The position numbers and the translations under genes were made by a program. This document shows, piece after piece, positions 22,664 through 39,423 of a stretch of DNA of 42,550 nucleotides. The notes under the pieces were generated by a model. The model saw only the letters and a program-made list of their open reading frames with translations. It did no database searches and had not been told where the DNA came from. Source of the stretch: Acidobacteriaceae bacterium (GTDB taxonomy: Bacteria; Acidobacteriota; Terriglobia; Terriglobales; Acidobacteriaceae); the NCBI GenBank assembly GCA_003134435.1, contig PLBE01000248.1, forward strand, positions 75,124-117,673, read 5' to 3'. How positions within the stretch are numbered: position 1 is the stretch's first letter; each line of letters starts with the position of its first letter.

Positions 22664-22677
22664 TGCGTTAAAATCCC

Positions 22678-23169: not shown

Positions 23170-23198
23170 TCGTCTGTTCCTCCCAACTGCTTGGACGT

Positions 23199-25279: not shown

Positions 25280-25280
25280 T

Positions 25281-27788
25281 TCAGTATTTCTCCGCGTAAG
25301 GTGACGAATTCCGATTCGGGGTCGAGTCCTTCTCCGGTAGCTCTTCCAACAAAGGCGCAAAAGAAAATTCCTCCGTCGCCTGCTCCGACGCCGTTTTCAC
25401 GGCTGCATTCGCTTTGCGCCACTCCAAAAACCTAGCTCGCCGTTCCGCCTTCACCATCGGCTTTCCCTTCCATTCCACATGCGATCCGCCGATCACAATC
25501 AGATGCGTGAGTCTCTCTTTGTCCACCCGGCAATACAGCACCCGCGCGTCCGAAGACCACGGACCGAAACTCCAAGCCTCGTCGCCCAGCGCAAAAAAGA
25601 ACTGTTCACGTCGCTCCGGCAGGGTTCCGTCAAGATAAGCAAGCTCATATACCTGCACCCCCGACTGAGTCGTGCTCGTGATCCTTGGATCAAAATGCGT
25701 TTCACGCTCCCTGCCATTTGCCGCAACCCGCGGCAGCAGCGCCGTTGCCGTCTCGGCCGGCAATAAAACTCGCGCCCGCGATTGCACCAGCGGCGCCGTC
25801 TCGAACTCCCCATAAGCCGGCGACAGAAGGGTCGTGCTCACTTCCGTCCCTCTCTGCCAGATCGTATTTTCCGGCATGATCAGGCTTAAACTCGATTCGC
25901 ACGCTCCGGCCCGGGTAATCTCCAGGCGTCCAGCGCTGACTTCCCGAACTCCAAGATCGGACGCGAAGTGCCAGCGCACTTCAAGTTCATGTTCGCCTCG
26001 GCCCACTGCGATGTCGCGAATCAGCCAAACACCACCTGCGATATGCAGTACGTGCCGCCGATGCACAATCCCATCCGCCAGCCGCGCGTATCCATTATGA
26101 CTGCCCACAAAGTAAGTGAAGGTCTTGCCTGCAATCCAATCTTCCGCGACCGTGGTCGGAATCTGCGTCCATGAAAAAGGTTCGTCCGCTACCGCCTGAT
26201 TCAATCCATCCACCCGCAGCGTGTTATGCGCGCCCGTTCCGCGAAACGTATTGCGCTCCGCCGGATCTCGCGAAATATAAACCCCGCTTCCCGAGTCCAC
26301 CAGCCACCGCCGTCCATCCATCGTAAGCCGCAGGCTAAGTGCGTCCGCGTGCCCGTGCCCCGAACGCCCCACGCCCTGCGGACCGGCATCGACTACCATC
26401 GTTTGCCTGAAGGGTTGCGAATCCGCGAGCCCGTAAAGCCCGCCGTCGCAAAACGCAAACGAGTGCGCCGCCGCTGCCGCACTCGCAGTCGTCGTGGCCA
26501 GCTGCGCGACCGCCGCATCGCCAAACAACCAGATCGATTCCTCCGTCAATCGCGCCGCCGAAAACTTCCTCCCATACATCAGCGCCCCAAGTGCCAGCGG
26601 ATCCGTCATCCACTCCGTCCGATTGCGCCTCGGATTCCACAAACGTCCGCCATCATCGTCCCCAAATCCTTCCGCCGGCCCCGCCAGCGCTAGCGCATCC
26701 ACTACCTCCAGCATTCGCCCCAGCACTCCGTCATATTCCGGCGGAATCTCCATCGCGTTCCGCGCCGCCAGCAGCCGCGCATATAAAAAAAAGTCGAGCG
26801 CGTACACGTGATAGTGCAGCGACTGCTCAAAATAAACGCCATCCGGACGAACTTGCCGCCCCGCCTCACGCCGCACGATTTTCCACCCGCATTCCTTCCA
26901 GCCCGCTGCCCCCGGTATCTGCGGATATAAAGTGCCCAGAAAGAAAAGCGCCACCGCTTCCCCCAGCAGATGCGTGTTGGGTGAAAAGTATGTCGAAAGA
27001 TAGCGCTCCATGTAACGCCCGTGAAACCCAAGCGCCGGCAGCATCTGTCCGCGAAACTCCGCCCCTTCCGCGGTTCCCGCCAGCAACTGGTCCACCCAGG
27101 TCCAGGACATACTGCGGAATGCCACTTCCAGCGAACTGCCCCAATTGATTCCCAGGGGATACGGATTCGCCTGGATCCAACTGCGCCACTGCGCCATCAG
27201 TTCGCGCGTGTATTTCTCGTCTCCGCTCAGCCGGCGAGCCTTGGCGAGCGTCACCAGATGCTGGTGCCGGTTCAATTCCCATGTGACTTTGTGGTCGCCC
27301 ACGACCGCGAAGTCAAGAAAAGGAATCCTGAACCACGGCAGCAGCGGCGCTCGCTTACCGTTCACCGGATCCAGATGCCAGTCGATCTCTTTGCAATTGG
27401 AATCGCCGGAATTGGAATCGCCGCTGCCCACACCGCCGCTGAAGTCGAGATTCTTGTAGCCCAGCAACTGAAAGCGATGCGCGCAGATCGCATCCGCCTC
27501 ACCCAAAATCTCCTCCGCTTCGCCCGGCAGATGCCGGAGCAACAACTTCGCCCGCTCTGAAGTCCCGGTGCCGCCGCGTTCGCCCTCTGAAGATTCGCCC
27601 TCGGCAAAAAAGAACCGCCCCGCCTGCCCCGCCGCTTCGGCATTCAGTCGAACCCTTCCGCTCCCTAGGCCCACCCGGTGCCGCAGCAGGTCGCCATGCT
27701 TGTGAAGTTCCTGCCCCACACGCACCCGCACCTCTTCCCAGTCCATTTGGGACACGCGCGCCAGCTTGCTTTGCCATCCAGAAGCCAC
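25281..27788 (-). CDS. Heparinase II/III-family protein
   Basis: An 835-residue protein with the two-part architecture of heparinase II/III and alginate-lyase-like polysaccharide lyases. An alpha-toroid region (about 80-400: WHLDPVNGKRAPLLPWFRIP, WELNRHQHLVTLAKA, LEVAFRSMSWTWVDQLL, NTHLLGEAVALFFLG) is followed by a beta-sandwich (from about 440: QTMVVDAGPQGVGRSGHGHADALS, RWLVDSGSGVYI, FRGTGAHNTLRVDG). No signal peptide is seen. Such proteins commonly sit in exopolysaccharide loci. The frame opens with GTG at 27788 and has an ATG at 27746; neither has a clear ribosome-binding site. A 15-bp direct repeat near 27400-27430 encodes the repeat GDSNSGDSN. It ends 1 nt before asnB. Confidence 0.85.
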   Translation of the reverse strand: MASGWQSKLARVSQMDWEEVRVRVGQELHKHGDLLRHRVGLGSGRVRLNAEAAGQAGRFFFAEGESSEGERGGTGTSERAKLLLRHLPGEAEEILGEADAICAHRFQLLGYKNLDFSGGVGSGDSNSGDSNCKEIDWHLDPVNGKRAPLLPWFRIPFLDFAVVGDHKVTWELNRHQHLVTLAKARRLSGDEKYTRELMAQWRSWIQANPYPLGINWGSSLEVAFRSMSWTWVDQLLAGTAEGAEFRGQMLPALGFHGRYMERYLSTYFSPNTHLLGEAVALFFLGTLYPQIPGAAGWKECGWKIVRREAGRQVRPDGVYFEQSLHYHVYALDFFLYARLLAARNAMEIPPEYDGVLGRMLEVVDALALAGPAEGFGDDDGGRLWNPRRNRTEWMTDPLALGALMYGRKFSAARLTEESIWLFGDAAVAQLATTTASAAAAAHSFAFCDGGLYGLADSQPFRQTMVVDAGPQGVGRSGHGHADALSLRLTMDGRRWLVDSGSGVYISRDPAERNTFRGTGAHNTLRVDGLNQAVADEPFSWTQIPTTVAEDWIAGKTFTYFVGSHNGYARLADGIVHRRHVLHIAGGVWLIRDIAVGRGEHELEVRWHFASDLGVREVSAGRLEITRAGACESSLSLIMPENTIWQRGTEVSTTLLSPAYGEFETAPLVQSRARVLLPAETATALLPRVAANGRERETHFDPRITSTTQSGVQVYELAYLDGTLPERREQFFFALGDEAWSFGPWSSDARVLYCRVDKERLTHLIVIGGSHVEWKGKPMVKAERRARFLEWRKANAAVKTASEQATEEFSFAPLLEELPEKDSTPNRNSSPYAEKY

Positions 27789-27832
27789 GGATTCATTTAT
27801 CTTACATGCTCAAAAGCCACTCTCAATCAGCC

Positions 27833-27848
27833 GGTTACCGTTGTAACC
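27833..27848. repeat. Inverted repeat GGTTAC-CGTT-GTAACC
   Basis: Perfect 6-bp arms about 45 nt upstream of the heparinase-like start. A regulator-binding site is possible; position fits control of the minus-strand genes. Confidence 0.4.
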
Positions 27849-28040
27849 CTCGCAAATCCCCAACCCTGACCGGGGCTCGCCGGTCGCGGTAGGATTATGG
27901 TTGCGGACAGTTTTTGTAAGGGAGCGGTTCACTCTTCACCCGTGCCGTAGCCTGGAAAGAAAAGAGTAAAAAGAAACGAGGCGAGAGAAACCATTGGAAA
28001 TGAATGACTTCTCCGCCTTCCCACTGGACTCGGAAGATGC

Positions 28041-28069
28041 TTGAGGATATTCTGTAACATATTGATAAC
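28041..28069 (+). promoter_or_regulatory. Weak promoter candidate for the algD-like gene
   Basis: TTGAGG (28041-28046), 17-nt spacer, GATAAC (28064-28069), followed by a leader of about 55 nt to the TTG start. Both hexamers match only four of six consensus bases. Confidence 0.3.
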
Positions 28070-28131
28070 AAGTATTTTGTTTCGCGCCAGAGGTTGCGTC
28101 TCACTCCCTCTCGGCGGTCAGGAGAACTCGC

Positions 28132-29457
28132 TTGAGCTTGTCGGTTAGCATTTTTGGATTGGGATACGTCGGTTCCGTTTCCGCAGCCTGTTTTGCCTCT
28201 ATGGGCCACAAGGTGATCGGCGTCGACGTTAGCCGAGCCAAGGTTGAAATGATGGCCGCCGGACGCACTCCCATCGTGGAAGCGCGCATGAGCGAAATGG
28301 TCGCCGAAGCTCACCGCGCCGGACTCCTGCAAGCTACCTCCGACGCGACCGCTGCCGTGCTCAATTCCGAAGTCTCTTTCGTCTGCGTCGGAACCCCCAG
28401 CCTCAAAAATGGCAAACTCGATCTCAGTCACATCGAGAGCGTTACCCGCGAAATCGCCGCCGCCATTCGCCAGAAGAAATCGCCCCACGTCTTTGTCCTG
28501 CGCAGCACCGTCCTCGCCGGGACCACCGAAACCGTCGTCCTGCCCATCCTCGAAAAAGAGAGTGGAAAAAAGTGCGGCCACGATTTCACCCTTTGCTATA
28601 ACCCCGAGTTCATGCGCGAAGGCAGCGCCGTCGCCGATTTCCTCAACCCGCCCTACACCATTCTCGGAGCCAGCGACACTCGCCACCTTGCCCCACTCCG
28701 CGAACTCTACAAGAACACTCCCGGCACCATCTACGAGACCACTATTCCCGTCGCCGAAATGGTCAAGTATTTTTCCAACATCTATCACGCCCTCAAGGTC
28801 GGTTTCGCCAACGAAATGGGAACCATGTGCAAGCACCTCGGCGTCGACGCCCAAGTCGTTACTACCATCTTCACCTCCGACACCAAGCTCAATATTTCTC
28901 CCGCCTATCTGTCTCCGGGGTTCGCCTTCGGCGGTTCCTGTCTTCCGAAAGATCTGCGCGCCATTACCTATAAAGCCAAAGAACTCGACCTCAAGCTGCC
29001 CTTGCTCGAATCCCTCCTGCCCAGCAACGCCGAGCACGTCGATCGCGCCCTGGAAATGGTGCTCAGCACGGGTAAGAAAAGAATTGCGCAGCTCGGACTC
29101 AGCTTTAAAGCCGGCACCGACGATCTCCGCGAAAGCCCCCAGGTCCAGTTGATCAAGCGCCTCATGGGCGAGGGCCTCGAAGTCAAGGTCTGGGACGAGG
29201 ATGTCTCTCTTGGCCGCTTGGCGGGAGCCAACCGCCAGTACATCGAAGAGGTCATCCCTCACATCGGCTCCGTGCTTTCCGCCGACCTCGAAGGTGTCCT
29301 GCGCACCGCTGAAGTCGTGATCCTGGGGAATAAATCCGCCAGCAAAGATCAACTGGCCAGGTACCTTCGCCCTGAACACATCGTCATTGACCTGATTCAT
29401 CTCGATAAGGCAAAGCGTCCGGAAGGCGCTAAAACGTATCAAGGAATTTGCTGGTGA
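28132..29457 (+). CDS. algD: GDP-mannose 6-dehydrogenase-like nucleotide-sugar dehydrogenase
   Basis: A 441-residue NAD-dependent dehydrogenase that oxidises a nucleotide sugar to its uronate. The N-terminal Rossmann motif is IFGLGYVGSVSAACFA. The catalytic cysteine lies in GFAFGGSCLPKDLRA, and the second domain begins GLSFKAGTDDLRESPQVQL. Segments such as SFVCVGTPSLKNGKLDLSHI and YNPEFMREGSA resemble AlgD (GDP-mannose 6-dehydrogenase, 436 residues) more than UDP-glucose dehydrogenase, so GDP-mannuronate is the likelier product; this choice is from memory of the family. It begins with TTG at 28132, with GGAG 7 nt upstream. Leads the plus-strand polysaccharide genes, with the FemAB-like and sulfotransferase genes downstream. 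Confidence 0.85.
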   Translation: MSLSVSIFGLGYVGSVSAACFASMGHKVIGVDVSRAKVEMMAAGRTPIVEARMSEMVAEAHRAGLLQATSDATAAVLNSEVSFVCVGTPSLKNGKLDLSHIESVTREIAAAIRQKKSPHVFVLRSTVLAGTTETVVLPILEKESGKKCGHDFTLCYNPEFMREGSAVADFLNPPYTILGASDTRHLAPLRELYKNTPGTIYETTIPVAEMVKYFSNIYHALKVGFANEMGTMCKHLGVDAQVVTTIFTSDTKLNISPAYLSPGFAFGGSCLPKDLRAITYKAKELDLKLPLLESLLPSNAEHVDRALEMVLSTGKKRIAQLGLSFKAGTDDLRESPQVQLIKRLMGEGLEVKVWDEDVSLGRLAGANRQYIEEVIPHIGSVLSADLEGVLRTAEVVILGNKSASKDQLARYLRPEHIVIDLIHLDKAKRPEGAKTYQGICW

Positions 29458-29647
29458 GAACCTCGAAGAACTCGCGTGGCAAACGGGCTCGGCCCCGTCC
29501 GGAAGTGTCCAGGAAATCTGACCCCGGCTTTGAAAGGGCACCGCTTCAGTCCTGCCGTAAGCCGCTGAAATTGGTTTGCGTTTCTGCGGCTGCGGTATGC
29601 TTTCCGCAACCCCGGCTGACCCCTTCCATCACGCGACCGGGAAACGC

Positions 29648-30679
29648 ATGAAGTTTCATCGCATCGACATCAAGTCCGCCGACTGGAAGCGCCTCGACGC
29701 TTTCACCGACCGCACCGTTTTCCAGACGCGCGAGTGGCTGCAATTTGTCGCCGAGTCGCAGCGGGCTCAGCCCGTTCTCGCCGAACTGCGCGAGAAAAAC
29801 GACGTTCTCGGATATTTCACCGGCCTTACCGTTTCAAAGTTCGGCATGAAGGTTCTGGGCAGTTCCTTTCCCGGCTGGACGACTCCCTACATCGGCTTCA
29901 ATCTCAATCCCAACGTGTCCCGCGCCCTCGCCCTGGCAGCTCTGGAGAAATTTGCGTGGGACGATCTCAAGTGCTTGCACCTCGAAGTCTCCGATCCCAA
30001 CTTCTCTGCCGGAGATGGCGAGGCCGCGGCCTTCAAGCTCGAGTACTACGCTTCCTATCGCACCGACCTGTCCCGCTCCGAAGAAGAATTGTTCAATTCC
30101 ATGGAGAGTGCCTGCCGCCGCTGCATTCGCAAAGCCGAGAAAAGCGGCCTGAAAATCGAAGAGGCCCACGACCTTGCCTTCGCCGACGAATACTTCGAGC
30201 AACTCAAGGACGTTTTCGCCAAACAATCCCTGGTTCCGACCTATTCCGTCGAGCGCGTGCGCTCCCTCGTGCGCCACCTCGAACCGAGTGGCAACATCCT
30301 ATTGCTGCGCGCCCGCGATCCGGAAGGGAAGTGCATCGCCACGGGAATTTATCCCGGCTTCAACCAGATTGCCGAGTTCTGGGGCAATGCCAGTTTCCGC
30401 GCCTATCAGGGCCTGCGCCCCAATGAAGCCTGCCACTGGTATGCCATGCGCTATTGGAAGCAGCGCGGCGTCGCCATTTTCGACTGGGGAGGCGAAGGCG
30501 CCTACAAGGAAAAATACGGCTGCCAGCCCCACCGCGTGCCCTGGTTCACGAAATCCCGGTATCAGATCGTGGGAGCCTTGCGCAACGAGGCGCGCAACCT
30601 GTTTGCCCGTAAGCAGAAGTTTCTCGGGTGGCTGCAGGGCAACCGCTCCGCGGCGGAACGCGTTCCGGCCGAGGAGTAG
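29648..30679 (+). CDS. FemAB/GNAT-like acyltransferase
   Basis: A 343-residue protein of the FemAB-like double-GNAT family. It shows FQTREWLQFVAESQRAQPVL at the N-terminus, TPYIGFNLNPN, LFNSMESACRRCIRKAEKSGL (the region that normally carries the conserved basic helix), and the C-terminal acetyltransferase part GIYPGFNQIAEFWGNASF, PNEACHWYAMRYWKQRGVAIFDWGG and EKYGCQPHRVPW. Members in exosortase/EPS loci are of unknown substrate; peptidoglycan-bridge enzymes are distant relatives. The ATG at 29648 begins the conserved part; the frame is open to 29576 without support. It lies 190 nt after algD and 64 nt before the sulfotransferase. Confidence 0.8.
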   Translation: MKFHRIDIKSADWKRLDAFTDRTVFQTREWLQFVAESQRAQPVLAELREKNDVLGYFTGLTVSKFGMKVLGSSFPGWTTPYIGFNLNPNVSRALALAALEKFAWDDLKCLHLEVSDPNFSAGDGEAAAFKLEYYASYRTDLSRSEEELFNSMESACRRCIRKAEKSGLKIEEAHDLAFADEYFEQLKDVFAKQSLVPTYSVERVRSLVRHLEPSGNILLLRARDPEGKCIATGIYPGFNQIAEFWGNASFRAYQGLRPNEACHWYAMRYWKQRGVAIFDWGGEGAYKEKYGCQPHRVPWFTKSRYQIVGALRNEARNLFARKQKFLGWLQGNRSAAERVPAEE

Positions 30680-30743
30680 CACGAAGAGAAGCAACCAGAA
30701 TGCAGTAAGACAAGTAAGCAAATAGAACTAGAAGGGAAGCACC

Positions 30744-31610
30744 ATGGCGTTACTGCTTCGCAGGGCCTTCCGGCATCTCTCGCGGGTTCACGACGTGCTC
30801 TTTCGCCGCACTCTGATCGAGCGCGAGATCACCATCTTCGACGACGACGTCTTCCTCACGTCCTACCCCCGTTCCGGCAATACCTGGACCCGCTTCCTGG
30901 TCGGCAACTTCGTCAATCCGAGCGAGCCCGTGACCTTCCTCAATGTCGAGCGCCTCGTGCCCGACATGTACAAGAGCGCCGATTGGGTCCTGCGCCGCCT
31001 GCCCCGCCCGCGCGTGCTCAAGAGCCATGAGTGCTTCGACGCCCGCTATCGCCGCGTCATCTACATCGTCCGCGACCCGCGCGATGTCGCCATTTCCAAC
31101 TATCACTGGGAGATGAAGCTGCGCTCCATTCGGGAAGGCTGCCCCATCGACGAGTTCGTCCCCCAGTGGATGGGTGGGAAGTTCTGGCGGCGCATCGGAT
31201 CCTGGGCCGACCACGTCCACAGCTGGCTGGCGACGCGCCAGGGACAGGACAACTTTCTGCTGATGCGCTACGAAGACCTGCAGCAGGATCAGCCCCGTGA
31301 ACTGGCGCGGGTGGCGGGTTTCATGGGCCTCGATCCCGATGCCGAGCGCATCCAGCGGGCCATTGAACGGAGCTCCGCCGCCAACATGCGCAAGATGGAA
31401 GAGACGCAGGGGAAGAAGTGGGTGGCGACGTTCCACACGCGGAGCGACAAGCCTTTTGTCCGCAAGGCGTCATCCGGGGGATGGCGGGCGGTGTTGCCGG
31501 GAAAGACCGTGACCTACATGGAGGCGCAGTGGGGGCCGCTGATGAAGCAACTGGGCTACCCGCTCTCGACCGAAACGGAAAAGGAAGCGCCGGAAGTCAC
31601 GCACGCTTAG
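30744..31610 (+). CDS. PAPS-dependent sulfotransferase
   Basis: A 288-residue sulfotransferase. The 5'-phosphosulfate loop is TSYPRSGNTWTRFLV (about residues 39-53) and the 3'-phosphate site is VIYIVRDPRDVAISNYH (about 109-125); the C-terminal FVRKASSGGWRAVL matches the RKGxxGDW-like segment of the family. It transfers sulfate from PAPS to a hydroxyl or amino group of a glycan, lipid or small molecule. AAGGGAAG precedes the ATG. In this neighbourhood (algD, asnB, heparinase-like) a polysaccharide substrate is a reasonable inference. The strand composition of the plus strand changes within the last third of this gene, from C-rich to G-rich. Confidence 0.88.
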   Translation: MALLLRRAFRHLSRVHDVLFRRTLIEREITIFDDDVFLTSYPRSGNTWTRFLVGNFVNPSEPVTFLNVERLVPDMYKSADWVLRRLPRPRVLKSHECFDARYRRVIYIVRDPRDVAISNYHWEMKLRSIREGCPIDEFVPQWMGGKFWRRIGSWADHVHSWLATRQGQDNFLLMRYEDLQQDQPRELARVAGFMGLDPDAERIQRAIERSSAANMRKMEETQGKKWVATFHTRSDKPFVRKASSGGWRAVLPGKTVTYMEAQWGPLMKQLGYPLSTETEKEAPEVTHA

Positions 31611-31628
31611 GGGACCCCCCCCGGTCCC
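31611..31628 (+). terminator. GC stem-loop after the sulfotransferase gene
   Basis: GGGACC-CCCCCC-GGTCCC, starting at the base after the stop codon. Perfect 6-bp stem with a C6 loop, but no T-run follows, so factor-independent termination is doubtful. Confidence 0.3.
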
Positions 31629-31654
31629 GCCCTCCAGATGCGCAAAACCGAGAA

Positions 31655-31672
31655 GTGTTCCACGTGGAACAC
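31655..31672. promoter_or_regulatory. Candidate parS site (ParB-binding centromere)
   Basis: A perfect 18-bp palindrome, GTGTTCCACGTGGAACAC. The inner 16 bases TGTTCCACGTGGAACA differ from the Bacillus parS consensus TGTTTCACGTGAAACA only at one symmetric position per arm, and match the TGTTCCACGTGGAACM form I recall from pseudomonads. It is intergenic, and sits within about 0.4 kb of the point where GC skew changes sign. No parA or parB is in the window. Confidence 0.85.
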
Positions 31673-31976
31673 TGTAGGCGCGTTACTGTACGTATAATAA
31701 TATACATATTGTGACGGTATCTGGCGGCAGGGGAAGGCAGTTAAGGCGAAGTGGGGCACGAGGCTGTTTTGCGATCTCAGGGGTGTGGCGGGACTGTGGA
31801 ACATCCCGGCTGACGTCTGTTTCTTGCCGGGCTTGCGGCATCGGGAGCCGCGGCGAAAGAGACTTTCATGGGATCGGCAGGCTTGCCGCCCCCCCGTTGC
31901 CAAGGGCGCGAAGGATGGGGCACCGCCGGCGTGGTTGTTGCCGGGGAAAGCGCGGCCACCCGCGTGGTTCGACGGG

Positions 31977-32984
31977 TTACTGGATTTCGTTGCCGTAGGT
32001 GGGGACGGATTGCTGCACCAGGTAGAGCAGGGTTTGAGCTCGCGACGACCAGTCGCTTTGGGGATATTGCGCGATCAATTGCTGAGCGATGGCGATGGCG
32101 GCATTCTTGGCTTGTTCGGACTTTTTGGCCTGGTCTTCGGTTTTGTAGATTTCGATGAGGGCGGCGCGGCGGGAGGCGGCGTTATAGAGGGCTTCGGGAG
32201 CGGCGGGAGAGGTGGGATGTTCTTTGGCATACTTTTCGTAGAGATCGGCTTCCTTATCTGGGCATTTTGAGGAGCCCTGCCATTCACCACAGAGTTTGTT
32301 GTCGATGAGGTGGAAGGTGGCGAGGTCGGCCCACTTGCTGCCGGGAAACTTCTTGATGACCTGCTTCATCCACTGCTCGTCGATTTCGCCGCGGATGTAG
32401 GCTTCTTTCTCGCGGGCGGAGGGGCGGGACTGCATATCGGCCTTGCCGATCTGCCAGCGAATGTCGGCGGCGCGATAAAGGGCTTCGCCGGCGAGAGGAG
32501 CGGCGGGGAAGATATCGTAGACGCGGCGATAGAGTCGCAAGGCATCCTGGGCGGCGCCGCGGCGACCGTGGCGGCGGCTGGCTTCGTCCTCGGCATCGAC
32601 GGCGGCGCCGAAGAGGATACGGTCGCCGTTGGGAGTGGTTGCCCAGACGATGCCGGTATCGAGGATCCAGCCGCTGATGGTTTTCTCCTGTTCGTCATCT
32701 TCCAAGACAAAGGCGGGGTCGGGCGCATTGGCGGAGCCGAGCAGCGCTTCGACGTGGAGCCAGTTGCGGCTTTTGTCAAGCAGAATGAGTTCGCGTCCGC
32801 GTTCGACTTGGCCGAGCTTGTTGGAAGTTGCATCGGGAGAGATATAGATGATGGCTTCGCGCACGAGCGTGCCGCGATCGGCGGCGAGCAGCGAAGAACT
32901 TCCCAGCAGCACCAAGGCGATCAAAAACAGAAAGTTGGGAATCAGTTTCACGGTCGTCTTCGTCTCCGGAATCGAGGGTAGCAT
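31977..32984 (-). CDS. Secreted protein with SH3-like and tetratricopeptide-like regions
   Basis: 335 residues, family not recognised by name. The start at 32984 gives a signal peptide with hydrophobic core FLFLIALVLLGSSSLLAAD; the longer frame to 33116 puts an unlikely Arg/Pro-rich leader before it. Residues after the signal resemble a bacterial SH3 domain (GTLVREAIIYISPDATSNKL, VERGRELILLDKSRNWLHVE). The rest is helical and resembles TPR repeats of envelope assembly proteins (RLYRRVYDIFPAAPLAGEAL, IKKFPGSKWADLATFHLID, AQQLIAQYPQSDWSSRAQTL). A periplasmic or outer-membrane location is likely. No ribosome-binding site is evident. Its 3' end faces the parS region. Confidence 0.75.
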   Translation of the reverse strand: MLPSIPETKTTVKLIPNFLFLIALVLLGSSSLLAADRGTLVREAIIYISPDATSNKLGQVERGRELILLDKSRNWLHVEALLGSANAPDPAFVLEDDEQEKTISGWILDTGIVWATTPNGDRILFGAAVDAEDEASRRHGRRGAAQDALRLYRRVYDIFPAAPLAGEALYRAADIRWQIGKADMQSRPSAREKEAYIRGEIDEQWMKQVIKKFPGSKWADLATFHLIDNKLCGEWQGSSKCPDKEADLYEKYAKEHPTSPAAPEALYNAASRRAALIEIYKTEDQAKKSEQAKNAAIAIAQQLIAQYPQSDWSSRAQTLLYLVQQSVPTYGNEIQ

Positions 32985-33168
32985 GTTGGATAAGATGCGT
33001 GAAACGGGGTGCGCGGGGTGGAGGCGAGACGGAGTTTGGCGTCGGATGAAGAAGCGAGGGGCTTTGATCACGGGGGACGCGGAGGAGCAGGTGGGATCGA
33101 CAGAATCGTAAGTCAACTGGTTCGACTCACCACGCTTTTATCTCACGCGCTTGTTTACGCCTTTTTGT

Positions 33169-33387
33169 TTACGCTTGTTTCTTGAATTCTCCTTCGAAGG
33201 AATGTTCGGGGCTGTGGCCGGGTTCGGGAAAATCGCTGTCAGCTCCGTCCTGCATGGGGTCGGGGTTGCGATGACCGAGTTGATTTCTCATGGAGTTGTT
33301 GCCGGCCTGGCCGCGTTCGTCGGGCTCCTGCGAGCCTTTCCCGCGGTCGGCATCGTTGTGAAGATGATCGCTGACACTTTTCGGCAT
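33169..33387 (-). CDS. Possible small hydrophilic protein
   Basis: A 72-residue open frame beginning MPKSVSDHLHNDADRGKG and ending EHSFEGEFKKQA, very rich in Asp, Glu, His, Asn, Gly and Pro. It has no hydrophobic segment and no cysteine. AAAGG lies 6 nt before the ATG. The composition suggests an intrinsically disordered cytoplasmic protein. It has no recognised family, and the opposite strand is also open here, so it may be chance. Confidence 0.45.
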   Translation of the reverse strand: MPKSVSDHLHNDADRGKGSQEPDERGQAGNNSMRNQLGHRNPDPMQDGADSDFPEPGHSPEHSFEGEFKKQA

Positions 33388-33579
33388 GACAGGCCTTTCG
33401 AAGTGCACATTGATAAGAATGAATCCAAAGGGTAGATTACGCCGAATGTTCGCGGCGGGCAATGTAGGGAGGGCGCGTGGGATGGGTGAAGTTCGGCGGC
33501 AATATTCCCGTCGGAGTGTTCGCCATTTATTTGCCTGGCGGAGGCTGAATTCTGGAAGGCCTTTGGAGCGTGCAAGTTG

Positions 33580-33608
33580 TTGTAATCGTTACTATAGGTA
33601 AATTTAAT
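33580..33608 (+). promoter_or_regulatory. Promoter of the HAD gene with overlapping palindrome
   Basis: -35 TTGTAA (33580-33585), 17-nt spacer, -10 TTTAAT (33603-33608, five of six consensus), 35 nt before the ATG. The palindrome GTAA-TCG-TTAC (33582-33592) overlaps the -35 and the spacer, a place where a bound regulator would block RNA polymerase. The surrounding 60 bases are clearly more AT-rich than the flanks. Confidence 0.55.
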
Positions 33609-33643
33609 AGTCGATTAACACGATCTTGAATCTAAAATAGAAC

Positions 33644-34483
33644 ATGGTCAACAAGCAGAGAAAACAATTTCTATTTGCCAGTGACTTCGATCAGACGCTG
33701 ACCTTTAACGATACAGGTTATGTACTGAGCGAGCTTCTTGGTATTTCCGTCGCGGAGTTCGAGCGCAAGGCGAAGGGCATGGCGAAGCTGAACCTGGTGC
33801 AACAGGGCGCCGAGCTTTCCTATCTTCTATTGCACGATCCGGAGTTCCGGTCGCGGGTGCGGCGCGACGACCTGATCAAGGCGGGGAAGCGGATTCGCCT
33901 GAAGGACAATATCAAGCAGATTTACGAGATACTGGACCGGCGGATCGACGGATTCCACTTTGATTTTTACGTAATTTCAGCGTCGCCAGTGGAAGTGATT
34001 CAGTCGGCGCTGGAGGGGATTGTGCCGGAGGATCACATTTTCGGCACCGAGTTCAAATGGAAGGCGTCGGGCGAGATTGAAAGCCTGGTGCGGGCGACGG
34101 CGGGTTATGGCAAGGTCACGCGGCTGGATCAACTGGAAGAGCAACTGGGGATTCCGGCGGACCATATTGTGTATGTGGGCGACGGCAGTTCGGACATTCA
34201 CGTGATGTTGCATGTGAACCGGCGCGACGGATTTACGATTGCGGTGTCGGAATCGAAACTGGTGGCGCAAATTGCGAAGCGGACGGTGCTTGGGGATAAC
34301 GCGCTGGCGACGCTGGTGCCGATTCTGGAAGAGATTGCGGGCTGGCAGCGGCCGCAGATCCGGCAGTTATTTGAATCCTACGGATTCCTGATTCAGGGAT
34401 GGGATCGAGTGCAGACGGACTGGGTGACGCTGCGTCCGAGCGGCGTGGCGGTGGAGAAAGTGACGGCGGCCGACGTGGTTTAA
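33644..34483 (+). CDS. HAD-superfamily phosphatase (PSP-like)
   Basis: A 279-residue HAD hydrolase. Motif I is [11 protein letters not shown] (Asp14 and Asp16), motif II Ser in VISASPVEV, and motif [13 protein letters not shown]. The cap between motifs I and II is helical, as in type-C1 enzymes (phosphoserine phosphatase and relatives). Positions after motif IV ([24 protein letters not shown], then [14 protein letters not shown]) are not typical of SerB, so the substrate is unknown. A phosphate ester is presumed. The gene is monocistronic by spacing, with its own promoter. Its coding strand is G-rich, in line with the G-rich plus strand of this part of the window. Confidence 0.82.
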
Positions 34484-34678
34484 GGTCGCGGGAATGGCTG
34501 GACTTTCCGGACAACTGATTCGGGCGCGGCTGGTTGTGGGCAGCGAGTGGTTGGGTGCAACTAATTGGCGGGTGCGGGGTTCTTACCTTCGGTATGCGAT
34601 TCTCGCTCACGGGTCGAGCTGAGTGTCGTCTAATGATTCTCGATTCAAAATGACTGTTGCAACGCCTGAGGCACTATC

Positions 34679-35290
34679 ATGAAGCGTCCCCTTGCTTTTT
34701 TCTTCGCATGGTTAATCGTAATTCTTGCCGCCGGAGTAGTGGAGGCGCAGCAGTCTTCGCAAGATGTGCCGTTAACGGCGGCGCCGCCACAACAGCAGCA
34801 GGAGCAGCGGGGGTGGATTCCGCAGGGCATTCAGGGGTTGCGGCAGAGCGCGGCGTCGAAAACGGAATTCACGCTGGACCACTCGATGCTGGTGATCGCA
34901 TCGAAGCTAAGTCCGGACAATGAAGATCTGCAGCGCGTGATTGCGGGAGTGAGCGGGGTCTCGGTGCATAGCTTCCGTTATTCCGGGCGGTGGACGTATG
35001 ATCCGGAGGCGCTGGGGGCGTTGAAGGAGGAATACCGAACGGCGGGTTGGACCCAATTGGTAAACAACCACGACAAGGACGGGGCGTCGGGGGGGATGAA
35101 TGTCTGGATCCGGTGGGAGAATAATGCGATCAGCAACGTGGCGATCCTTTCGGCGCGGGCGAATGAGGTTGATTTTTTCGTGGTAACGGGGTCGATCAGT
35201 CCGATTGATCTGTCGCATCTGGGCGGGCATTTTGGGATTCCGAAGCTTGACGGCGGAGTGGTGGTGCCAAGGGGGCCGGGACGGCCTTAG
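34679..35290 (+). CDS. Secreted protein, DUF4252-like
   Basis: 203 residues with a signal peptide (MKRPLAFFFAWLIVILAAGVVEAQ, cleavage after about residue 23) and a Gln/Pro-rich linker. The mature part (LDHSMLVIASKLSPDNEDLQRVIAGVSGVSVHSFRY, WTQLVNNHDKDG, NVWIRWENNAISNVAILSA, VVTGSISPIDLSHL) resembles DUF4252 proteins, small secreted domains of unknown function. TGAGG lies 7 nt before the ATG. No lipobox cysteine. DUF4252 genes are often next to ECF sigma factors; none is here. Confidence 0.65.
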   Translation: MKRPLAFFFAWLIVILAAGVVEAQQSSQDVPLTAAPPQQQQEQRGWIPQGIQGLRQSAASKTEFTLDHSMLVIASKLSPDNEDLQRVIAGVSGVSVHSFRYSGRWTYDPEALGALKEEYRTAGWTQLVNNHDKDGASGGMNVWIRWENNAISNVAILSARANEVDFFVVTGSISPIDLSHLGGHFGIPKLDGGVVVPRGPGRP

Positions 35291-35396
35291 GGTCGTTGTG
35301 GCGAGGGGAGTGAGCGAGGAGTGCGCGGCAATTCCCAGCAACGGCAAGAGCAACACCGACACGGAGCAACGGAGGCGGGCGTCCGTTTTCCGTGGG

Positions 35397-36230
35397 CTAG
35401 CGGGTTTTGGGGGATGGGCCGAGTTTGCGCAATTTGTCGCGGGCTTGCGCGGCTTCGGTGGTGCGGGGATAGCGCTGGATCACGTGCTTGAGTTCTTGTG
35501 AGCCCTCATCTTCTTTTCCGAGCTCGATCAGCGCGAATCCTTTTTTGAGTTGGGCGGCGGCGGCTTTATTTCCGCTGGGAAAGTTCTGCAGCACGAGGTC
35601 GTAGTTGGTGACGGCTTTCTGGTAATCGCCCGCCTTGAACTGAATTTCGGCGAGGTAGAAGTATGAATTTCCGGCGAGATCGGTGTTGGGATAGAACTTG
35701 ATGTAGTCGTTGAATTCCTGGGTGGAGAGGTCGTTTTTCCCGCCGTTATAGTCACGCAGGGCGTTGTTGTAGAGCACGTCTGGGGGGGGCGCCTGGGCCA
35801 TCTCCTGTTGTTTCTGCTGCTCCAGCGCCTGCTGGGCGGCCAGGGATTGCTGGGCGGCCTGCATGTCCTCGAACTGTTTGCTGAGCTTGGCGAGGCGAAC
35901 CTTCAGTTCGTCCATGGTATCGTTCAGGGCCTGAATCTGGCCGGAGATCTGATCGACCTGGCCGGCACGATCCTGCTGTTGTTTGTTGATGGAGGTTTGC
36001 AGTTCGTTGATGGCGGAGCTGACTTTGTTGGCGGCGTCGGTGTTCTGCTCCATCAGATTCTTCATCACGCCCATACGCTCGTCAAAGGACTGCTTCATCT
36101 GGGTCATCTGCTGTTGCAGTTGGGCGACCTGGGTTTGCAGTTCGATGATGTCTTTGTTGGCGGCGCTGGCGGGACCGATGGAGATGGCGAGGAGAAGCGC
36201 GAGAGTCAGCGGGATGGATTTCGATTTCAT
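35397..36230 (-). CDS. cpoB: Tol-Pal system coordinator CpoB (YbgF)
   Basis: A periplasmic protein of 277 residues that couples outer-membrane constriction to peptidoglycan synthesis. Signal peptide MKSKSIPLTLALLLAISIGPASA, then a long coiled coil (about 27-150: VAQLQQQMTQMKQSFDERM, INELQTSINKQQQDRAGQV, MDELKVRLAKLSKQFEDM), then three tetratricopeptide repeats (LYNNALRDYNGGKNDLSTQE, SYFYLAEIQFKAGDYQKAV, LKKGFALIELGKEDEGSQEL). The start at 36230 has AGGA 5 nt upstream. Last gene of the tol-pal operon, about 51 nt after pal. The coiled coil is much longer than that of E. coli CpoB. Confidence 0.9.
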   Translation of the reverse strand: MKSKSIPLTLALLLAISIGPASAANKDIIELQTQVAQLQQQMTQMKQSFDERMGVMKNLMEQNTDAANKVSSAINELQTSINKQQQDRAGQVDQISGQIQALNDTMDELKVRLAKLSKQFEDMQAAQQSLAAQQALEQQKQQEMAQAPPPDVLYNNALRDYNGGKNDLSTQEFNDYIKFYPNTDLAGNSYFYLAEIQFKAGDYQKAVTNYDLVLQNFPSGNKAAAAQLKKGFALIELGKEDEGSQELKHVIQRYPRTTEAAQARDKLRKLGPSPKTR

Positions 36231-36281
36231 AGTGATCCTGTTCGATGGCAATGCCGGGAGCGGGAACTAGTCCGCTATCGG

Positions 36282-37058
36282 TTATTTGTCGTAAACGAAA
36301 TGGCCGCGGCGGTTTTGCTGCCAGCAACTTTCGTTGGACTCGGTGCAGAATGGTTTCTCCTTGCCCATGGTAATGGTTTTGATGCGTTCGCCAGCGATGC
36401 CAGACTGGACGAGGGCGTTCTTAACCGTATCGGCGCGGTTGGTGCCGAGGGCGAGGTTATATTCGGTGGAGCCGCGCTCGTCGGAGTGACCCTCGATGGT
36501 GACGTGGATACTGGCGTGCTGCTGCAGAAACTGGGCATCGCTCTGCAAGGAGCTTTGCTGATCGGGGCGCAGGTTGTCTTTGTCGTAGTCGAAATAGATG
36601 TCCTTCACCTGCTGGGCGAAGAGTTCTTCTTCGGTGGTGTTGGAGGCGGCCGGGGGCGGGGCGGCGGCGGAGTTGACGGTGACGCGAGCGGTGGCGTCCT
36701 GCGTGCCTCCGGCGCCTTTGGCGATGAGATGGTAGGTGGTGGAATCGGCGGGAGCGACTTGACGCGAGCCGGCGAGATCGACGGCTCCGATGCCGTCGAT
36801 GGTGACGTCGGTGGCGTTGGTGGTTTGCCAGGTGAGGGTGGTGGTCTGGCCCTGGTCAATGGTATTGGGATTGGCCGACAAGGAGGCAGTGGGGGCGGTC
36901 ATCGAGGGCGGCGGCGTCGGCAGAGGCGGCGCGACCTTCTTGGCGCAAGCGCCGAGGAACAGTATTGTGCCGAGTGTAAAAGCCGCGGTGAACCATCGGG
37001 TAACGGTTGGGGCGGTGATTGTAGTCGTCGCTGGGTTCGTCCTTGTCTTCATGGTCAT
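36282..37058 (-). CDS. pal: Peptidoglycan-associated lipoprotein Pal with Ig-like insert
   Basis: Outer-membrane lipoprotein that anchors the membrane to peptidoglycan. The lipobox is LGAC (Cys at about residue 38). The C-terminus is an OmpA-like domain: IYFDYDKDNLRPDQQSSLQ, IEGHSDERGSTEYNLALGTN (diaminopimelate-binding Asp and Arg included), and a variant ending with CTESNESCWQQNRRGHFV. Between them lies about 85 residues of Ig-like beta domain (SANPNTIDQGQTTTLTWQTT, STTYHLIAKGAGG), absent from E. coli Pal. Of the ATG cluster at 37064/37058/37052, the one at 37058 has AAGGA 5 nt upstream. 258 residues. Follows tolB by about 150 nt, the largest gap in the operon. Confidence 0.92.
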   Translation of the reverse strand: MTMKTRTNPATTTITAPTVTRWFTAAFTLGTILFLGACAKKVAPPLPTPPPSMTAPTASLSANPNTIDQGQTTTLTWQTTNATDVTIDGIGAVDLAGSRQVAPADSTTYHLIAKGAGGTQDATARVTVNSAAAPPPAASNTTEEELFAQQVKDIYFDYDKDNLRPDQQSSLQSDAQFLQQHASIHVTIEGHSDERGSTEYNLALGTNRADTVKNALVQSGIAGERIKTITMGKEKPFCTESNESCWQQNRRGHFVYDK

Positions 37059-37113
37059 CGTCATCCTTAAGAAAGACGTCACTTGGATGCCTCCGGTTAG
37101 TGACTCAATCTTT

Positions 37114-37142
37114 ACCACAGAGGGCACCGAGAAACACAGAGG
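37114..37142 (+). repeat. Dispersed 29-nt CACNGAGG-type repeat, copy 2
   Basis: Begins ACCACAGAGGGCACCG and ends ACACAGAGG, in the pal-tolB gap. Internally it is a run of CAC(A/C)GAG-like units about 12 nt apart. 22 of 29 positions match copy 1 and 21 of 29 match copy 3 by my count. Confidence 0.55.
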
Positions 37143-37208
37143 AAAGCTAACGGTGGCCGTGCGTCAGTGTGTACCCTGCAGGGCATATTCTGAATGGTTG
37201 AGATCAAA

Positions 37209-38528
37209 CTATTTCCAACTCCAGTTGGGCTGCGTATTGTTGCCTTTGAAAGTCAGTTGTTTGACGTTGGTGCCGTCGGCGAGCATGGTCCATATCTGGT
37301 CGGAGCCGGAGCGGTGGGACTGGAAAACGATGTGGCGTCCGTCGGGCGACCAGCAGGGGAAGTCGTTGCGACCGGAGTCGTGGGTGAGTTGGACCCACTG
37401 CTTGCTGGCGACGTCCATAAGATAAAGATCGTTGGAGCCGGGCTCACCGGGGCCGTACTTACGCATCCAGGAAAAGGTCAGGAACTGGCCATTGGGCGAC
37501 CAGTTGGGCGAGACGGCGTAGCCCTGATCGGTGAGGCGCTGGAGGTTGGTGCCATCCGATTCCATGGTATAGATCTGGGGAAGGCCGGAGCGTCCGCTGA
37601 CGAAGGCGATCTGGGATCCGGTTTTGCGGTTCCAGGTGGGAGAGACGTCAGGCCCCTTATCGTTGGTGAGGCGGCGGGAGTTTCCCCCGGAGCCGTCGAT
37701 GACAAAGATGTTGGGATAGCCACTGCGGGAGGAAGAGAAGGCGATCTTGCCATCGGGCGACCAGGAGGGCGAGAGATTCATGCCGCCAAAACGCGGGAAG
37801 GCGATCATGCGATTGAGATCGAACGAGTACATCATGATCTCCCAACCGCCTTTGTTGATCGAACTGAAGGCGAGGCGGGAGCCATCGGGCGAGATGCGGG
37901 GCGAGAGGGAAATGCTGCCGAGGTGAGTGACCTGCTGCTGGTTGGCGCCGTCGTAATCCATGGCCCAGATTTCTTTATGGCCAGAGCGTTCGCTGACGAA
38001 GTAGATTTTGCTTTCGGCAATTCCGGCCATGCCGCCGCCGAGGCGGAAGATGATTTCGTCGGCGAATTTGTGAGCGATGACGCGCACGGCGTCGCTGGTG
38101 GCGTTGTCGAGGTATTGCTTACCGAGCACCTGGGGCGACTTTTCATTTTTGACGTCGTAGAGCCATCCCTGGACGGTGACTTTGCCGGCGGCCGCGCCGA
38201 GGTTGCCGAAGGCGAGCATGGAAGTGTTGGGGGGCGGGGAATTCCAGGCGGAGAAGTTGATTTCGGAGGGTTGGCCGGGTTCCTGGAGGGGATAAAAGCT
38301 TTTGGAGACAAGGTCAAAGATGCCGGCGTTGTCGAGGTCGTTCCAGAGGGTGTCGTTGAAGGTTTTGAGGAGCGCGGAGTTGGTGGGGTCGGCGGTCGAG
38401 GGCTTGAAATCGGAAGCGGCGAGGCGGATGCGTTCGGCGGAGAGGCCGGTCCCGCCGCGAACCCAGTCCTGGGCTGCGGATGCTGTGATCAGGAGGAATG
38501 GGAGAAAGCAGTATAGAAAACGCTTCAT
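37209..38528 (-). CDS. tolB: Tol-Pal system beta-propeller protein TolB
   Basis: A periplasmic protein of 439 residues. Signal peptide MKRFLYCFLPFLLITASA, an N-terminal TolB domain (IRLAASDFKPSTADPTN, NDTLWNDLDNAGIFDLVS, VQGWLYDVKNEKSPQVLG) and a six-bladed propeller with repeated SPDG/WSPDG motifs (LSPRISPDGSRLAFSS, LSPSWSPDGKIAFSSSRSG, VSPTWNRKTGSQIAFVSGRSG, VSPNWSPNGQFLTFSW, FPCWSPDGRHIVFQSHRSG). The start at 38528 has AGAGG 4 nt upstream and lies 22 nt after the tolA stop. The longer frame to 38681 runs inside tolA and is rejected. The signal is short and followed directly by QDWVRGG. Confidence 0.95.
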   Translation of the reverse strand: MKRFLYCFLPFLLITASAAQDWVRGGTGLSAERIRLAASDFKPSTADPTNSALLKTFNDTLWNDLDNAGIFDLVSKSFYPLQEPGQPSEINFSAWNSPPPNTSMLAFGNLGAAAGKVTVQGWLYDVKNEKSPQVLGKQYLDNATSDAVRVIAHKFADEIIFRLGGGMAGIAESKIYFVSERSGHKEIWAMDYDGANQQQVTHLGSISLSPRISPDGSRLAFSSINKGGWEIMMYSFDLNRMIAFPRFGGMNLSPSWSPDGKIAFSSSRSGYPNIFVIDGSGGNSRRLTNDKGPDVSPTWNRKTGSQIAFVSGRSGLPQIYTMESDGTNLQRLTDQGYAVSPNWSPNGQFLTFSWMRKYGPGEPGSNDLYLMDVASKQWVQLTHDSGRNDFPCWSPDGRHIVFQSHRSGSDQIWTMLADGTNVKQLTFKGNNTQPNWSWK

Positions 38529-38550
38529 GGAGCCTCTATTTTTGTGGGGA

Positions 38551-39333
38551 TCATTTTTTATCGGGATCAAAGTACCACTCCGCTGAGAGTTTATTTCCAG
38601 AATAGTCTGAAGGCAGGGGACCGAAGGTATCAATTCGCAGGAGGGTTCGAACCGCGGATTGATCGACGGCAGGAACTCCACTCGATTGCTCGATTTCGAC
38701 GTTGGAGGGGTGTCCGTCGCGGGCGATGTCGAAGGTCAGGTAGACCCGCTTTGCTTCGGTGATTCTGGGGTCGAACGTTTGCCAGTTTTCGGTGATTTTG
38801 CGTCCCATGGCCTGGACGTACCAGGGAAAGCGGCTGCCGAAATCGCCATTGGTGCCGGCAAATCCAAAGCCGCCTTTTCCGCCTCCGGCGCTCATGGTGT
38901 AGGGGCCGCTGACAGGACCGCCCTCGCCATAGGGAATCTGATTCGACTCGGGGGGTTGGGGTTGCGGCTTGCGTTGAGTGGCGCTGGGCGGCGCGGGTTT
39001 CACTTTGGTCTTGGTATTTTTGTCGGGAATCGGAATCGCATCCGGCTCTTTTTCTTGAATGGCGGGCTGCGACTTGGCGAGGCCCTTGGATTCGGTGGCG
39101 AGGACGCTTGTGGTTTCGGCTGGATTGGCGGGCAGGGGAATGGAACTCACGAGGGTTGCACCCATGGCATCGCCACCGCCTCCACTACCCCAGCCCTGGC
39201 GGTGAAGGCCGTGAATGAAGACGGCATAGAGGACGACAAAAGCGGCGAAGGCGAGATGGAGGCCGAGCGACCAGGCGAGAGGGCGGCGGAGTTGACCGCT
39301 TTCGGAATCGAAGTCGAGGGAGCTGTAGGGCAT
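38551..39333 (-). CDS. tolA: TolA/TonB-like energy transducer
   Basis: About 260 residues. One N-terminal membrane anchor (RPLAWSLGLHLAFAAFVVLYAVF), a Gly-rich then Pro/Lys-rich periplasmic linker (KTKVKPAPPSATQRKPQPQP) and a C-terminal TonB/TolA fold (WYVQAMGRKITENWQTFDP, KRVYLTFDIARDGHPSNVEI, VDQSAVRTLLRID). It should carry energy from TolQR to Pal/TolB. The linker is short and Pro-rich like TonB, not the long helical domain of enterobacterial TolA; position in the operon decides the name. The ATG at 39333 is used; a TTG at 39351 would extend into the tandem repeats. No strong ribosome-binding site precedes either. Confidence 0.82.
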   Translation of the reverse strand: MPYSSLDFDSESGQLRRPLAWSLGLHLAFAAFVVLYAVFIHGLHRQGWGSGGGGDAMGATLVSSIPLPANPAETTSVLATESKGLAKSQPAIQEKEPDAIPIPDKNTKTKVKPAPPSATQRKPQPQPPESNQIPYGEGGPVSGPYTMSAGGGKGGFGFAGTNGDFGSRFPWYVQAMGRKITENWQTFDPRITEAKRVYLTFDIARDGHPSNVEIEQSSGVPAVDQSAVRTLLRIDTFGPLPSDYSGNKLSAEWYFDPDKK

Positions 39334-39345
39334 ATCCAATCGTTG

Positions 39346-39404
39346 TTTCAAATCCGCGTTTCAGATCCGCATTTCAGGTCCACATTTCAAATCCGCATTT
39401 CAAA
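39346..39404. repeat. 13-bp tandem repeat between tolR and tolA
   Basis: Four full copies of TTTCAAATCCGCA-like units (39346-39358, 39359-39371, 39372-39384, 39385-39397) and a partial fifth (39398-39404). Units differ at one to three positions. It fills most of the tolR-tolA gap, just upstream of the tolA start, where copy number would alter the leader of tolA. Confidence 0.85.
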
Positions 39405-39423
39405 GCAAAAATCAGGTGCGGTT

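What the first reader, a model, noticed from the sequence alone, without database searches (positions are those of the whole stretch)
30900..32400. GC skew of the plus strand changes sign near 31.3-31.7 kb, irrespective of gene direction
Counts in single 60-base lines: 17221-17280 (plus gene) C 24, G 16; 24481-24540 (minus gene) C 26, G 15; 33841-33900 (plus gene) G 26, C 16; 37621-37680 (minus gene) G 26, C 12. Gene orientation therefore does not explain it. Reading along the plus strand, negative-to-positive skew is the pattern at a replication origin, since leading strands are usually G-rich. The skew left of about 9 kb is weaker and mixed (adhE shows G at least equal to C). The flip lies within the end of the sulfotransferase gene and is next to the parS palindrome.
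Basis: partly seen in the sequence, partly recalled or inferred. Interest (0 to 1): 0.85.

Follow-up and report, generated by a model that had tools for sequence, protein, structure and literature searches.

The report
Scattered centromere sites flip strand skew
In this soil bacterium's genome the G-versus-C strand bias flips beside a copy of the chromosome-partition site parS, and the same flip is seen at most of the other scattered parS copies sampled in its genus, so it seems to mark parS sites with a strand bias of their own and not simply the one replication origin.

Summary
Cumulative GC skew has its minimum at 31164, 492 bp from a perfect parS palindrome (31656-31671). At four-fold degenerate sites the skew goes from about -0.5 to about +0.6 on both gene strands, so transcription does not explain it. 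That this is the replicon's origin is only partly supported: dnaA and the parAB-linked parS cluster lie on other contigs, and the same negative-to-positive step recurs at other parS sites. Of 40 parS loci from seven same-genus genomes, 35 had enough flank; 32 step upwards (mean 0.139). Control points in the same loci average 0.000. A congener keeps genes from both sides of the flip collinear, has no parS between them, and has no skew there. Most secondary sites in the genus carry a composite element: parS plus TGTACGTACA-like boxes at preferred spacings. Limits: the effect is strong in three genomes, weak or absent in others, unproven in other genera, and some equally sharp jumps have no parS. 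Best reading: a secondary parS from which a two-way, strand-asymmetric process starts; local replication initiation is the leading but unproven form. Seven searches of the held papers listed no report of this.

The parts
31656..31671 (.). parS palindrome TGTTCCACGTGGAACA (chromosomal ParB site), one of five exact copies at three places in this genome
   Evidence: exact match in the window and in the own genome
31687..31696 (.). TGTACGTATA box, one mismatch from TGTACGTACA, 15 bp from parS; part of a composite element seen at most secondary parS sites sampled in the genus
   Evidence: position; such boxes (up to 2 mismatches) lie within 120 bp of 35 of 40 sites against 1 of 40 control places, most often 0-5 or 15-20 bp from parS
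31700..31709 (.). ATATACATAT, possible degenerate further box of the composite element
   Evidence: position; layout judged by eye from the flanks printed
31164..31164 (.). minimum of cumulative GC skew (switch point)
9001..31164 (.). left arm, negative plus-strand GC skew; it continues leftwards on the contig and fades to about 0 over roughly 70 kb
   Evidence: four-fold sites
31672..42550 (.). right arm, positive plus-strand GC skew up to the contig end
30744..31610 (+). sulfotransferase gene, transcribed towards parS
   Evidence: Pfam PF00685 E 3.2e-37
31977..33116 (-). YfiO/TPR-like gene, transcribed towards parS (convergent with the sulfotransferase)
   Evidence: Pfam PF13525 E 8.1e-06

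Best explanation
The switch marks a secondary chromosomal parS site, not the replicon's single oriC. In this Acidobacteriaceae/Terriglobales genus several parS copies are scattered over the chromosome, and most of those sampled are the centre of a local domain in which the strand running away from parS has more G than C. SHOWN: the step sits at or close to parS, is independent of gene strand, recurs at most parS copies of the best-sampled congeners, and is absent from a collinear congener locus that lacks parS. INFERRED: something directional starts at ParB-bound parS and moves outwards on both sides, leaving a strand-asymmetric mutational imprint. I think bidirectional replication initiation at or beside these sites is the most likely form, because G over C outwards is the sign of a leading strand and is the sign seen at the parAB-linked sites of the same genus. 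The boxes beside parS may bind a second protein; their function is unknown. My confidence in the descriptive part (secondary parS with a parS-centred local skew step) is about 0.85; in local replication initiation as the cause about 0.3. On checking I lowered both a little: the AT-skew argument fell away and the strongest non-parS jumps are upward.
For: Minimum 492 bp from parS. Four-fold skew -0.50/-0.55 to +0.65/+0.61 on both gene strands. Steps at the other parS loci of the genome. Same-genus set: 40 loci, 35 with at least 2 kb on both sides, 32 of 35 step up, mean 0.139, 19 negative-to-positive and 2 positive-to-negative flips; two of the 35 (L073, L092) are main parAB sites, so 30 of 33 secondary. 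In-locus controls: 31 sites mean 0.145, 27 positive; 52 points 5 kb away mean 0.000, 23 positive. G161+G128: 19 sites mean 0.203, 14 at 0.1 or more; controls 11 (mean 0.009), 60 (-0.019) and 22 (-0.020), of which 1, 5 and 3 reach 0.1. Pooled profile changes at parS: -0.09, then 0.00 in the first 250 bp and +0.03 to +0.05 beyond. More parS copies, larger step (rho 0.54, 35 sites; confounded with genome). Orthologous blocks: 19 of 24 arms have more outward skew with parS than without (0.128 against 0.055, p 0.002). Collinear G028 locus without parS: -0.005/-0.024 against -0.154/+0.232. No single polar oligomer stands out.
Against: Sharp upward jumps without parS exist and are as strong as many parS ones: C198 ~52 kb (0.30), G128 C50 ~338 kb (0.28), C9 ~79 kb (0.24) and ~232 kb (0.21); non-parS jumps are balanced at lower thresholds (11 up/10 down at 0.15, 4/3 at 0.20) but 2/0 at 0.25. 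L143, an orthologue of the window's HAD locus, goes from -0.145 to +0.109 with no parS in the held flank. At four-fold sites the AT skew does not follow a leading-strand pattern; in the window it goes from -0.32/-0.05 to +0.11/+0.26. No DnaA-box enrichment (TTATNCACA 0 within 1 kb of 40 sites) and no cluster in the sequences scanned. Genes near the sites point inwards more than outwards (270 against 165 kb). Weak or absent in G166 (0.02-0.07, 4 sites), G163 (mean 0.07), G167 (0 of 2), G136's secondary site and G028 C12:364220, G005/G014 (6 of 11, 2-kb arms). G017: 6 of 7 but p 0.04, and at two of the six a neighbouring control is about as large. The conserved pair L094/L098 shows +0.03 and -0.10. 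No coverage or wet data.
Confidence: 0.42

Rival explanations
1. This is the one replication origin (oriC) of the replicon.
For: Sharp negative-to-positive switch, gene-independent, beside parS; step of the same order as at the main parS loci of congeners (0.44 and 0.35).
Against: dnaA on C125 and the parB-linked parS cluster on C28; equivalent switches at other parS loci; no DnaA-box cluster; congener G028 has its sharp switch at the parAB cluster (C12:104397) and none at the window's syntenic position; skew fades to zero within about 70 kb.
Confidence: 0.08
2. SMC/condensin loaded by ParB at parS (or sliding ParB itself) moves outwards and leaves strand-asymmetric mutation or repair; no replication starts here.
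For: parS is the common element; a two-way outward process from a palindrome must flip sign there; more parS copies go with a larger step; recruitment of SMC at parS is stated as known in PMC10197239 (passages).
Against: I know of no way for SMC movement to expose or mutate one strand; several genomes have parS without a clear step.
Confidence: 0.27
3. parS copies are kept or inserted at places that already were skew minima, or are remains of former origin regions moved by rearrangement; parS is not the cause.
For: The skew profiles are mosaics with sharp jumps in both directions, and strong upward jumps without parS exist; the interval around the window's parS is replaced relative to G028, and 18 of 21 relatives compared share sequence only from about 33178 rightwards.
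Against: The flip is absent from the collinear G028 locus without parS; remains should not keep an exact 16-mer with boxes at preferred spacings at 35 of 40 sites; too many sites per genome to be past origins.
Confidence: 0.23
4. Chimeric contig or local inversion at the flip.
For: Draft assembly of 261 contigs; the window ends at a contig end; the DNA just left of 33178 was not found in the 21 relatives compared.
Against: Genes of both arms are collinear in G028 at similar spacing (16.6 and 20.2 kb); the pattern recurs in other assemblies.
Confidence: 0.03
5. Transcription or gene orientation makes the skew.
For: 20 of 40 sites lie between convergent genes by mechanical ORF calls.
Against: Four-fold-site GC skew has the same sign in plus and minus genes of each arm.
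Confidence: 0.01

Closest known systems
Chromosomal parS sites of the ParABS/Spo0J system
   Same: Exact 16-bp palindrome; parB present in the genome; a multi-copy parS cluster beside parB in congeners.
   Different: Extra copies are scattered (in G017 up to 1.4 Mb from the main cluster), have flanking TGTACGTACA-like boxes at 35 of 40 genus sites, and mostly sit on local skew steps. That known parS lie mostly near oriC is recalled and also stated in a passage of PMC5815017; Livny 2007 itself is not held.
GC-skew switch at a bacterial oriC
   Same: Sign, sharpness, gene-independence.
   Different: Several per genome, fades over tens of kb, no DnaA-box cluster found, away from dnaA and parAB.
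Multi-origin skew profiles (skew N-domains of eukaryotes, multi-origin archaea; recalled)
   Same: Upward jumps with more gradual declines between on parts of G128 C9 and C50.
   Different: Bacterial chromosome; some jumps tied to parS, others not; sharp downward jumps too; initiation not shown.
Ectopic parS in Caulobacter (PMC5815017, passages seen)
   Same: Extra parS away from the main cluster.
   Different: There engineered and partly harmful, and 'GC skew' has 0 occurrences in that text; here natural.

Membership tests
Chromosomal parS site | TGTTNCACGTGNAACA palindrome | tested here: met
   exact at 31656-31671; the pattern read backwards gives 0 in this genome
Chromosomal parS site | ParB encoded in the genome | tested here: met
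   TIGR00180: 3 matches in G000, best E 3.6e-26; 146 of 150 family genomes searched, G000 included
Chromosomal parS site | located near oriC/parAB | tested here: not met
   no par gene among the 30 window ORFs scanned with Pfam; main cluster on C28; the true distance is unknown in a draft assembly
Chromosomal parS site | bound by ParB in cells | not testable with these tools
   needs ChIP
Replication origin (oriC) | switch of GC skew from negative to positive | tested here: met
Replication origin (oriC) | unique per replicon | tested here: not met
   similar switches at other parS loci; that several lie on one replicon is shown only where contigs join them (G028 C12, G017)
Replication origin (oriC) | DnaA-box cluster | tested here: not met
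   2 scattered near matches in the window, no cluster; none near dnaA or the main parS either, so this clade's box may differ
Replication origin (oriC) | dnaA/dnaN or similar neighbourhood | tested here: not met
Replication origin (oriC) | coverage maximum in growing cells | not testable with these tools
   no reads held
Secondary (multi-origin) replication origin | local GC-skew divergence on both arms, gene-independent | tested here: met
Secondary (multi-origin) replication origin | initiator binding sites or an unwinding element | tested here: inconclusive
   AT content rises only within 100 bp of parS (0.50 and 0.47 against about 0.41); TGTACGTACA boxes present but function unknown

The most novel reading that the evidence does not exclude
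Chromosomes of this acidobacterial genus replicate from several places: each scattered parS, with its flanking boxes, is a bifunctional centromere-origin from which forks start often enough to imprint strand bias over tens of kilobases, giving a natural multi-origin bacterial chromosome.
Probability: 0.22. Interest if true: 0.97.

Novelty: new variant of a known kind. Interest (0 to 1): 0.75.

Why it matters
GC-skew switches are routinely used to locate the single bacterial origin. Here they occur at many parS copies, so that rule would mislead, and they point to an unrecognised directional process starting from ParB-parS. If replication starts there, it would be a natural bacterial chromosome with many origins; if not, then SMC or ParB movement may leave a strand-specific mutational imprint. 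Either would be new to my knowledge and is directly testable by sequencing growing cells.

Tried and rejected
Transcription as cause: rejected by four-fold sites split by gene strand. A KOPS-like oligomer as carrier of the skew: no dominant polar 4-, 6- or 8-mer; the strongest residuals are general C-rich against G-rich words. DnaA-box origin: no clusters in the 14 sequences scanned. AT skew as a sign of C deamination: all-base AT skew goes the expected way (window +0.027 to -0.081; 40 loci +0.015 to -0.040), but at four-fold sites it does not, and in the window it is reversed, so I dropped that argument. Phage element: parS-N-TTGTACRTACA has 0 exact matches in viral contigs. Boxes as determinant of the step: their number does not correlate with step size (rho -0.01), and G017's secondary parS lack them. 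Non-parS jumps: only C198 about 53 kb was read; no parS-like site (up to 4 mismatches) or box (1 mismatch) lies there, and by eye it is inside coding sequence. HAD orthologues in named genomes: of 80 loci returned I analysed 40 (L112-L151); none has parS (up to 2 mismatches, CACGTG core intact) in the held flank; of the twelve closest (L112-L123), ten have held left flank and are positive there, and eleven of twelve are positive on the right, so no flip; L143 does flip upwards without parS.

Rows dropped before counts: one search measured 35 of 40 loci (five had under 2 kb on one side). One search used 19 of 20 G161+G128 sites and 11 of 20 contig-start controls (the others under 16 kb). One search left out blocks within 12 kb of an exact parS in the held target and arms with under 800 aligned bases. 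One search used 31 of 40. include L073, later recognised as G161's main parAB site; searches also include L092, G128's main site. The fetched parS loci were chosen from the list, mostly sites that seemed to have room on both sides; that list was cut, so the parS sites of five genomes with matches (G147, G153, G170, G171, G172) were not seen, and listed sites near contig starts (in G128, G161, G163, G164, G165, G166), all of G169's and G095's (listed) were not fetched. Eight of the 24 genus genomes have no exact parS. Of the 12 single-contig family genomes ten have exact parS in one cluster only; G017 and G136 have scattered ones.

Full report
OBSERVATION. Plus-strand GC skew is negative from about 9 to 31 kb and strongly positive from 31.5 kb to the right end of the window, which is also the end of contig C103. 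The cumulative minimum is at 31164 and the perfect parS palindrome at 31656-31671. At four-fold degenerate sites the GC bias has the same sign in genes of either strand: -0.50 and -0.55 on the left, +0.65 and +0.61 on the right. This looks like a strand-specific mutational bias, not a coding effect. The 5-kb step of 0.35 is the largest found in the 347 kb held of this genome and is equalled by one other parS site in the 1.14 Mb scanned.

WHERE THE USUAL ORIGIN MARKERS ARE. The genome (5.75 Mb, 261 contigs; the closest named relatives are Acidobacteriaceae and Terriglobia MAGs) has its best dnaA match on C125. It has five exact parS copies at three places: C28 (three in tandem), the window, and C198:87362. 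C28 is homologous to the parB-parS locus of congener G028 (parB at C12:102748, parS at 104613), and the dnaA contig matches G028 C12 about 30 kb from there. So the main partition locus and dnaA are not in the window. No DnaA-box cluster was found in the window or in any of the 14 sequences scanned, main regions included, so the box consensus of this clade may differ.

THE FLIP GOES WITH parS. In the window's own genome the other parS loci also sit at or near negative-to-positive switches: C198:87362 (minimum at 87765), the C28 cluster (minimum at 1491, parS from 1717), and a one-mismatch parS at C154:64238 (minimum at 63384). In G028 the parAB cluster has a sharp switch (minimum 104397), C1:38810 a clear but less exact one (minimum 42711), C12:641035 a weak one and C12:364220 none. 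I then took 40 parS loci from seven same-genus genomes. Of the 35 with at least 2 kb on both sides, 32 step upwards (mean 0.139); 19 flip negative to positive and 2 positive to negative. Two of these 35 are main parAB loci, so 30 of 33 secondary sites step up. With 4.5-kb arms 27 of 31 sites are positive, mean 0.145, against 23 of 52 and mean 0.000 for points 5 kb away in the same loci (p 6e-7). For G161 and G128 the mean step is 0.203 at 19 sites, against 0.009 at 11 contig-start controls and about -0.02 at 82 points along two long contigs; 14 of 19 sites but 9 of 93 controls reach 0.1. The pooled profile goes from about -0.09 left of parS to 0.00 in the first 250 bp and +0.03 to +0.05 beyond. 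Sites share ancestry and genomes and some controls overlap, so these p-values are optimistic.

NATURAL EXPERIMENT. Congener G028 keeps window genes 14716-17048 and, of those at 33644-42550, seven of eight collinear on its contig C1 at similar spacing; the genes between differ. It has no parS there (up to 2 mismatches), and its skew, in window orientation, is -0.005 and -0.024 against -0.154 and +0.232 in the window. This also argues against a chimeric join. Over 24 parS-flanking arms with orthologous blocks elsewhere that have no exact parS within 12 kb in the held sequence, outward skew is higher with parS in 19 (mean 0.128 against 0.055, p 0.002). Of 80 HAD-gene orthologous loci returned I analysed 40; none has parS in the held flank, and the closest show no flip, but one more distant locus (L143) goes from -0.145 to +0.109 without parS. 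In 18 of 21 relatives compared, shared sequence begins at about 33178 and none of the seven tested window genes to the left was found, so the interval around parS is not shared with them.

ANATOMY OF THE SECONDARY SITES. In this genus most sampled sites carry a composite element. TGTACGTACA-like boxes (up to 2 mismatches) occur within 120 bp of 35 of 40 sites against 1 of 40 control places, most often 0-5 or 15-20 bp from parS; the 8-mer TACGTACA occurs 40 times, at 22 of 46 sites, within 250 bp, against 0.2 expected. In the window the box is at 31687-31696, with a possible further one at 31700-31709. The main sites of G161 (L073) and G128 (L092) have none. Half of the 40 sites lie between convergent genes by mechanical ORF calls. 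Box number does not predict step size; parS number does (rho 0.54), though G128 holds most multi-copy sites. G017's secondary parS lack the boxes.

HOW GENERAL. The effect varies. G161: 13 of 13 measurable sites. G128: 7 of 7. G163: 6 of 6 and G166: 4 of 4 but small (means 0.07 and 0.04). G165: 2 of 3. G167: 0 of 2. Scattered parS are not general in the family: of 12 single-contig genomes ten have exact parS in one cluster only. In G017, one of the two exceptions and of another genus, 15 exact parS lie at 8 loci; 6 of 7 secondary loci step up, but modestly (mean 0.057 against 0.015 for 16 controls, of which 11 are also positive, p 0.04; at two of the six a neighbouring control is about as large), on top of an ordinary one-origin skew around the parAB cluster in sampled stretches. 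G136's one secondary site shows nothing. In two more genera, with about 2 kb on each side or less, 6 of 11 are positive (mean 0.042), which does not establish the effect there. Sharp jumps without parS exist in both directions: 11 up and 10 down at 0.15, 4 and 3 at 0.20, 2 and 0 at 0.25, counted after setting aside the five parS jumps. Some may be rearrangement boundaries; the two strongest are upward and unexplained.

MECHANISM. The palindromic symmetry of parS means that any process starting there and moving both ways can give opposite skews. Outward strands are richer in G, as leading strands usually are, and with the same sign as at the parAB-linked sites. AT skew gives no clear support: at four-fold sites it does not follow, and in the window it is reversed. 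Local replication initiation explains sign, gene-independence and fading with distance best of the mechanisms I considered. It is unproven: no initiator sites were recognised, and genes point inwards more than outwards (270 kb against 165 kb). SMC or ParB movement is the main rival; keeping of parS at pre-existing minima is the other. Parts of G128 C9 and C50, with upward jumps and declines between, resemble multi-origin profiles, but sharp downward jumps occur there too.

LITERATURE. Seven answered searches of the held library (listings only) showed no title or abstract start describing skew steps at secondary parS. Passages of PMC10197239 and PMC5815017 were seen; the first uses parS clusters and skew together to place the one origin and notes that dnaA need not mark it. 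Livny 2007 is not held. This does not prove that nothing is in print.

Noticed in passing
window 33169-33387, minus strand: Small open frame of 72 codons (hydrophilic product) upstream of the HAD gene; the DNA is 76-83% identical in 18 of 21 relatives compared. Not searched against family libraries.
   Followed up: partly
G000 C198 ~52-53 kb; G128 C9 ~79 and ~232 kb; G128 C50 ~338 kb: Sharp upward skew jumps without a parS-like site; the C198 one lies inside coding sequence by eye.
   Followed up: partly
same-genus genomes: The number of exact parS copies varies from 0 to 17 among 24 genomes of one genus (some incomplete), which suggests quick turnover.
   Followed up: no
L076 (G161) and L101 (G165); L094 (G163) and L098 (G165): Two secondary parS positions look conserved between species; the second pair shows no consistent upward step.
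   Followed up: no
L143 (HAD orthologue locus in a named MAG): Skew goes from -0.145 to +0.109 across the HAD gene with no parS (up to 2 mismatches) in the held 20.8 kb.
   Followed up: no
G028 C12:60-105 kb: The dnaA region and the parAB cluster lie about 30 kb apart, and the sharp skew minimum is at the parS cluster, not at dnaA.
   Followed up: partly
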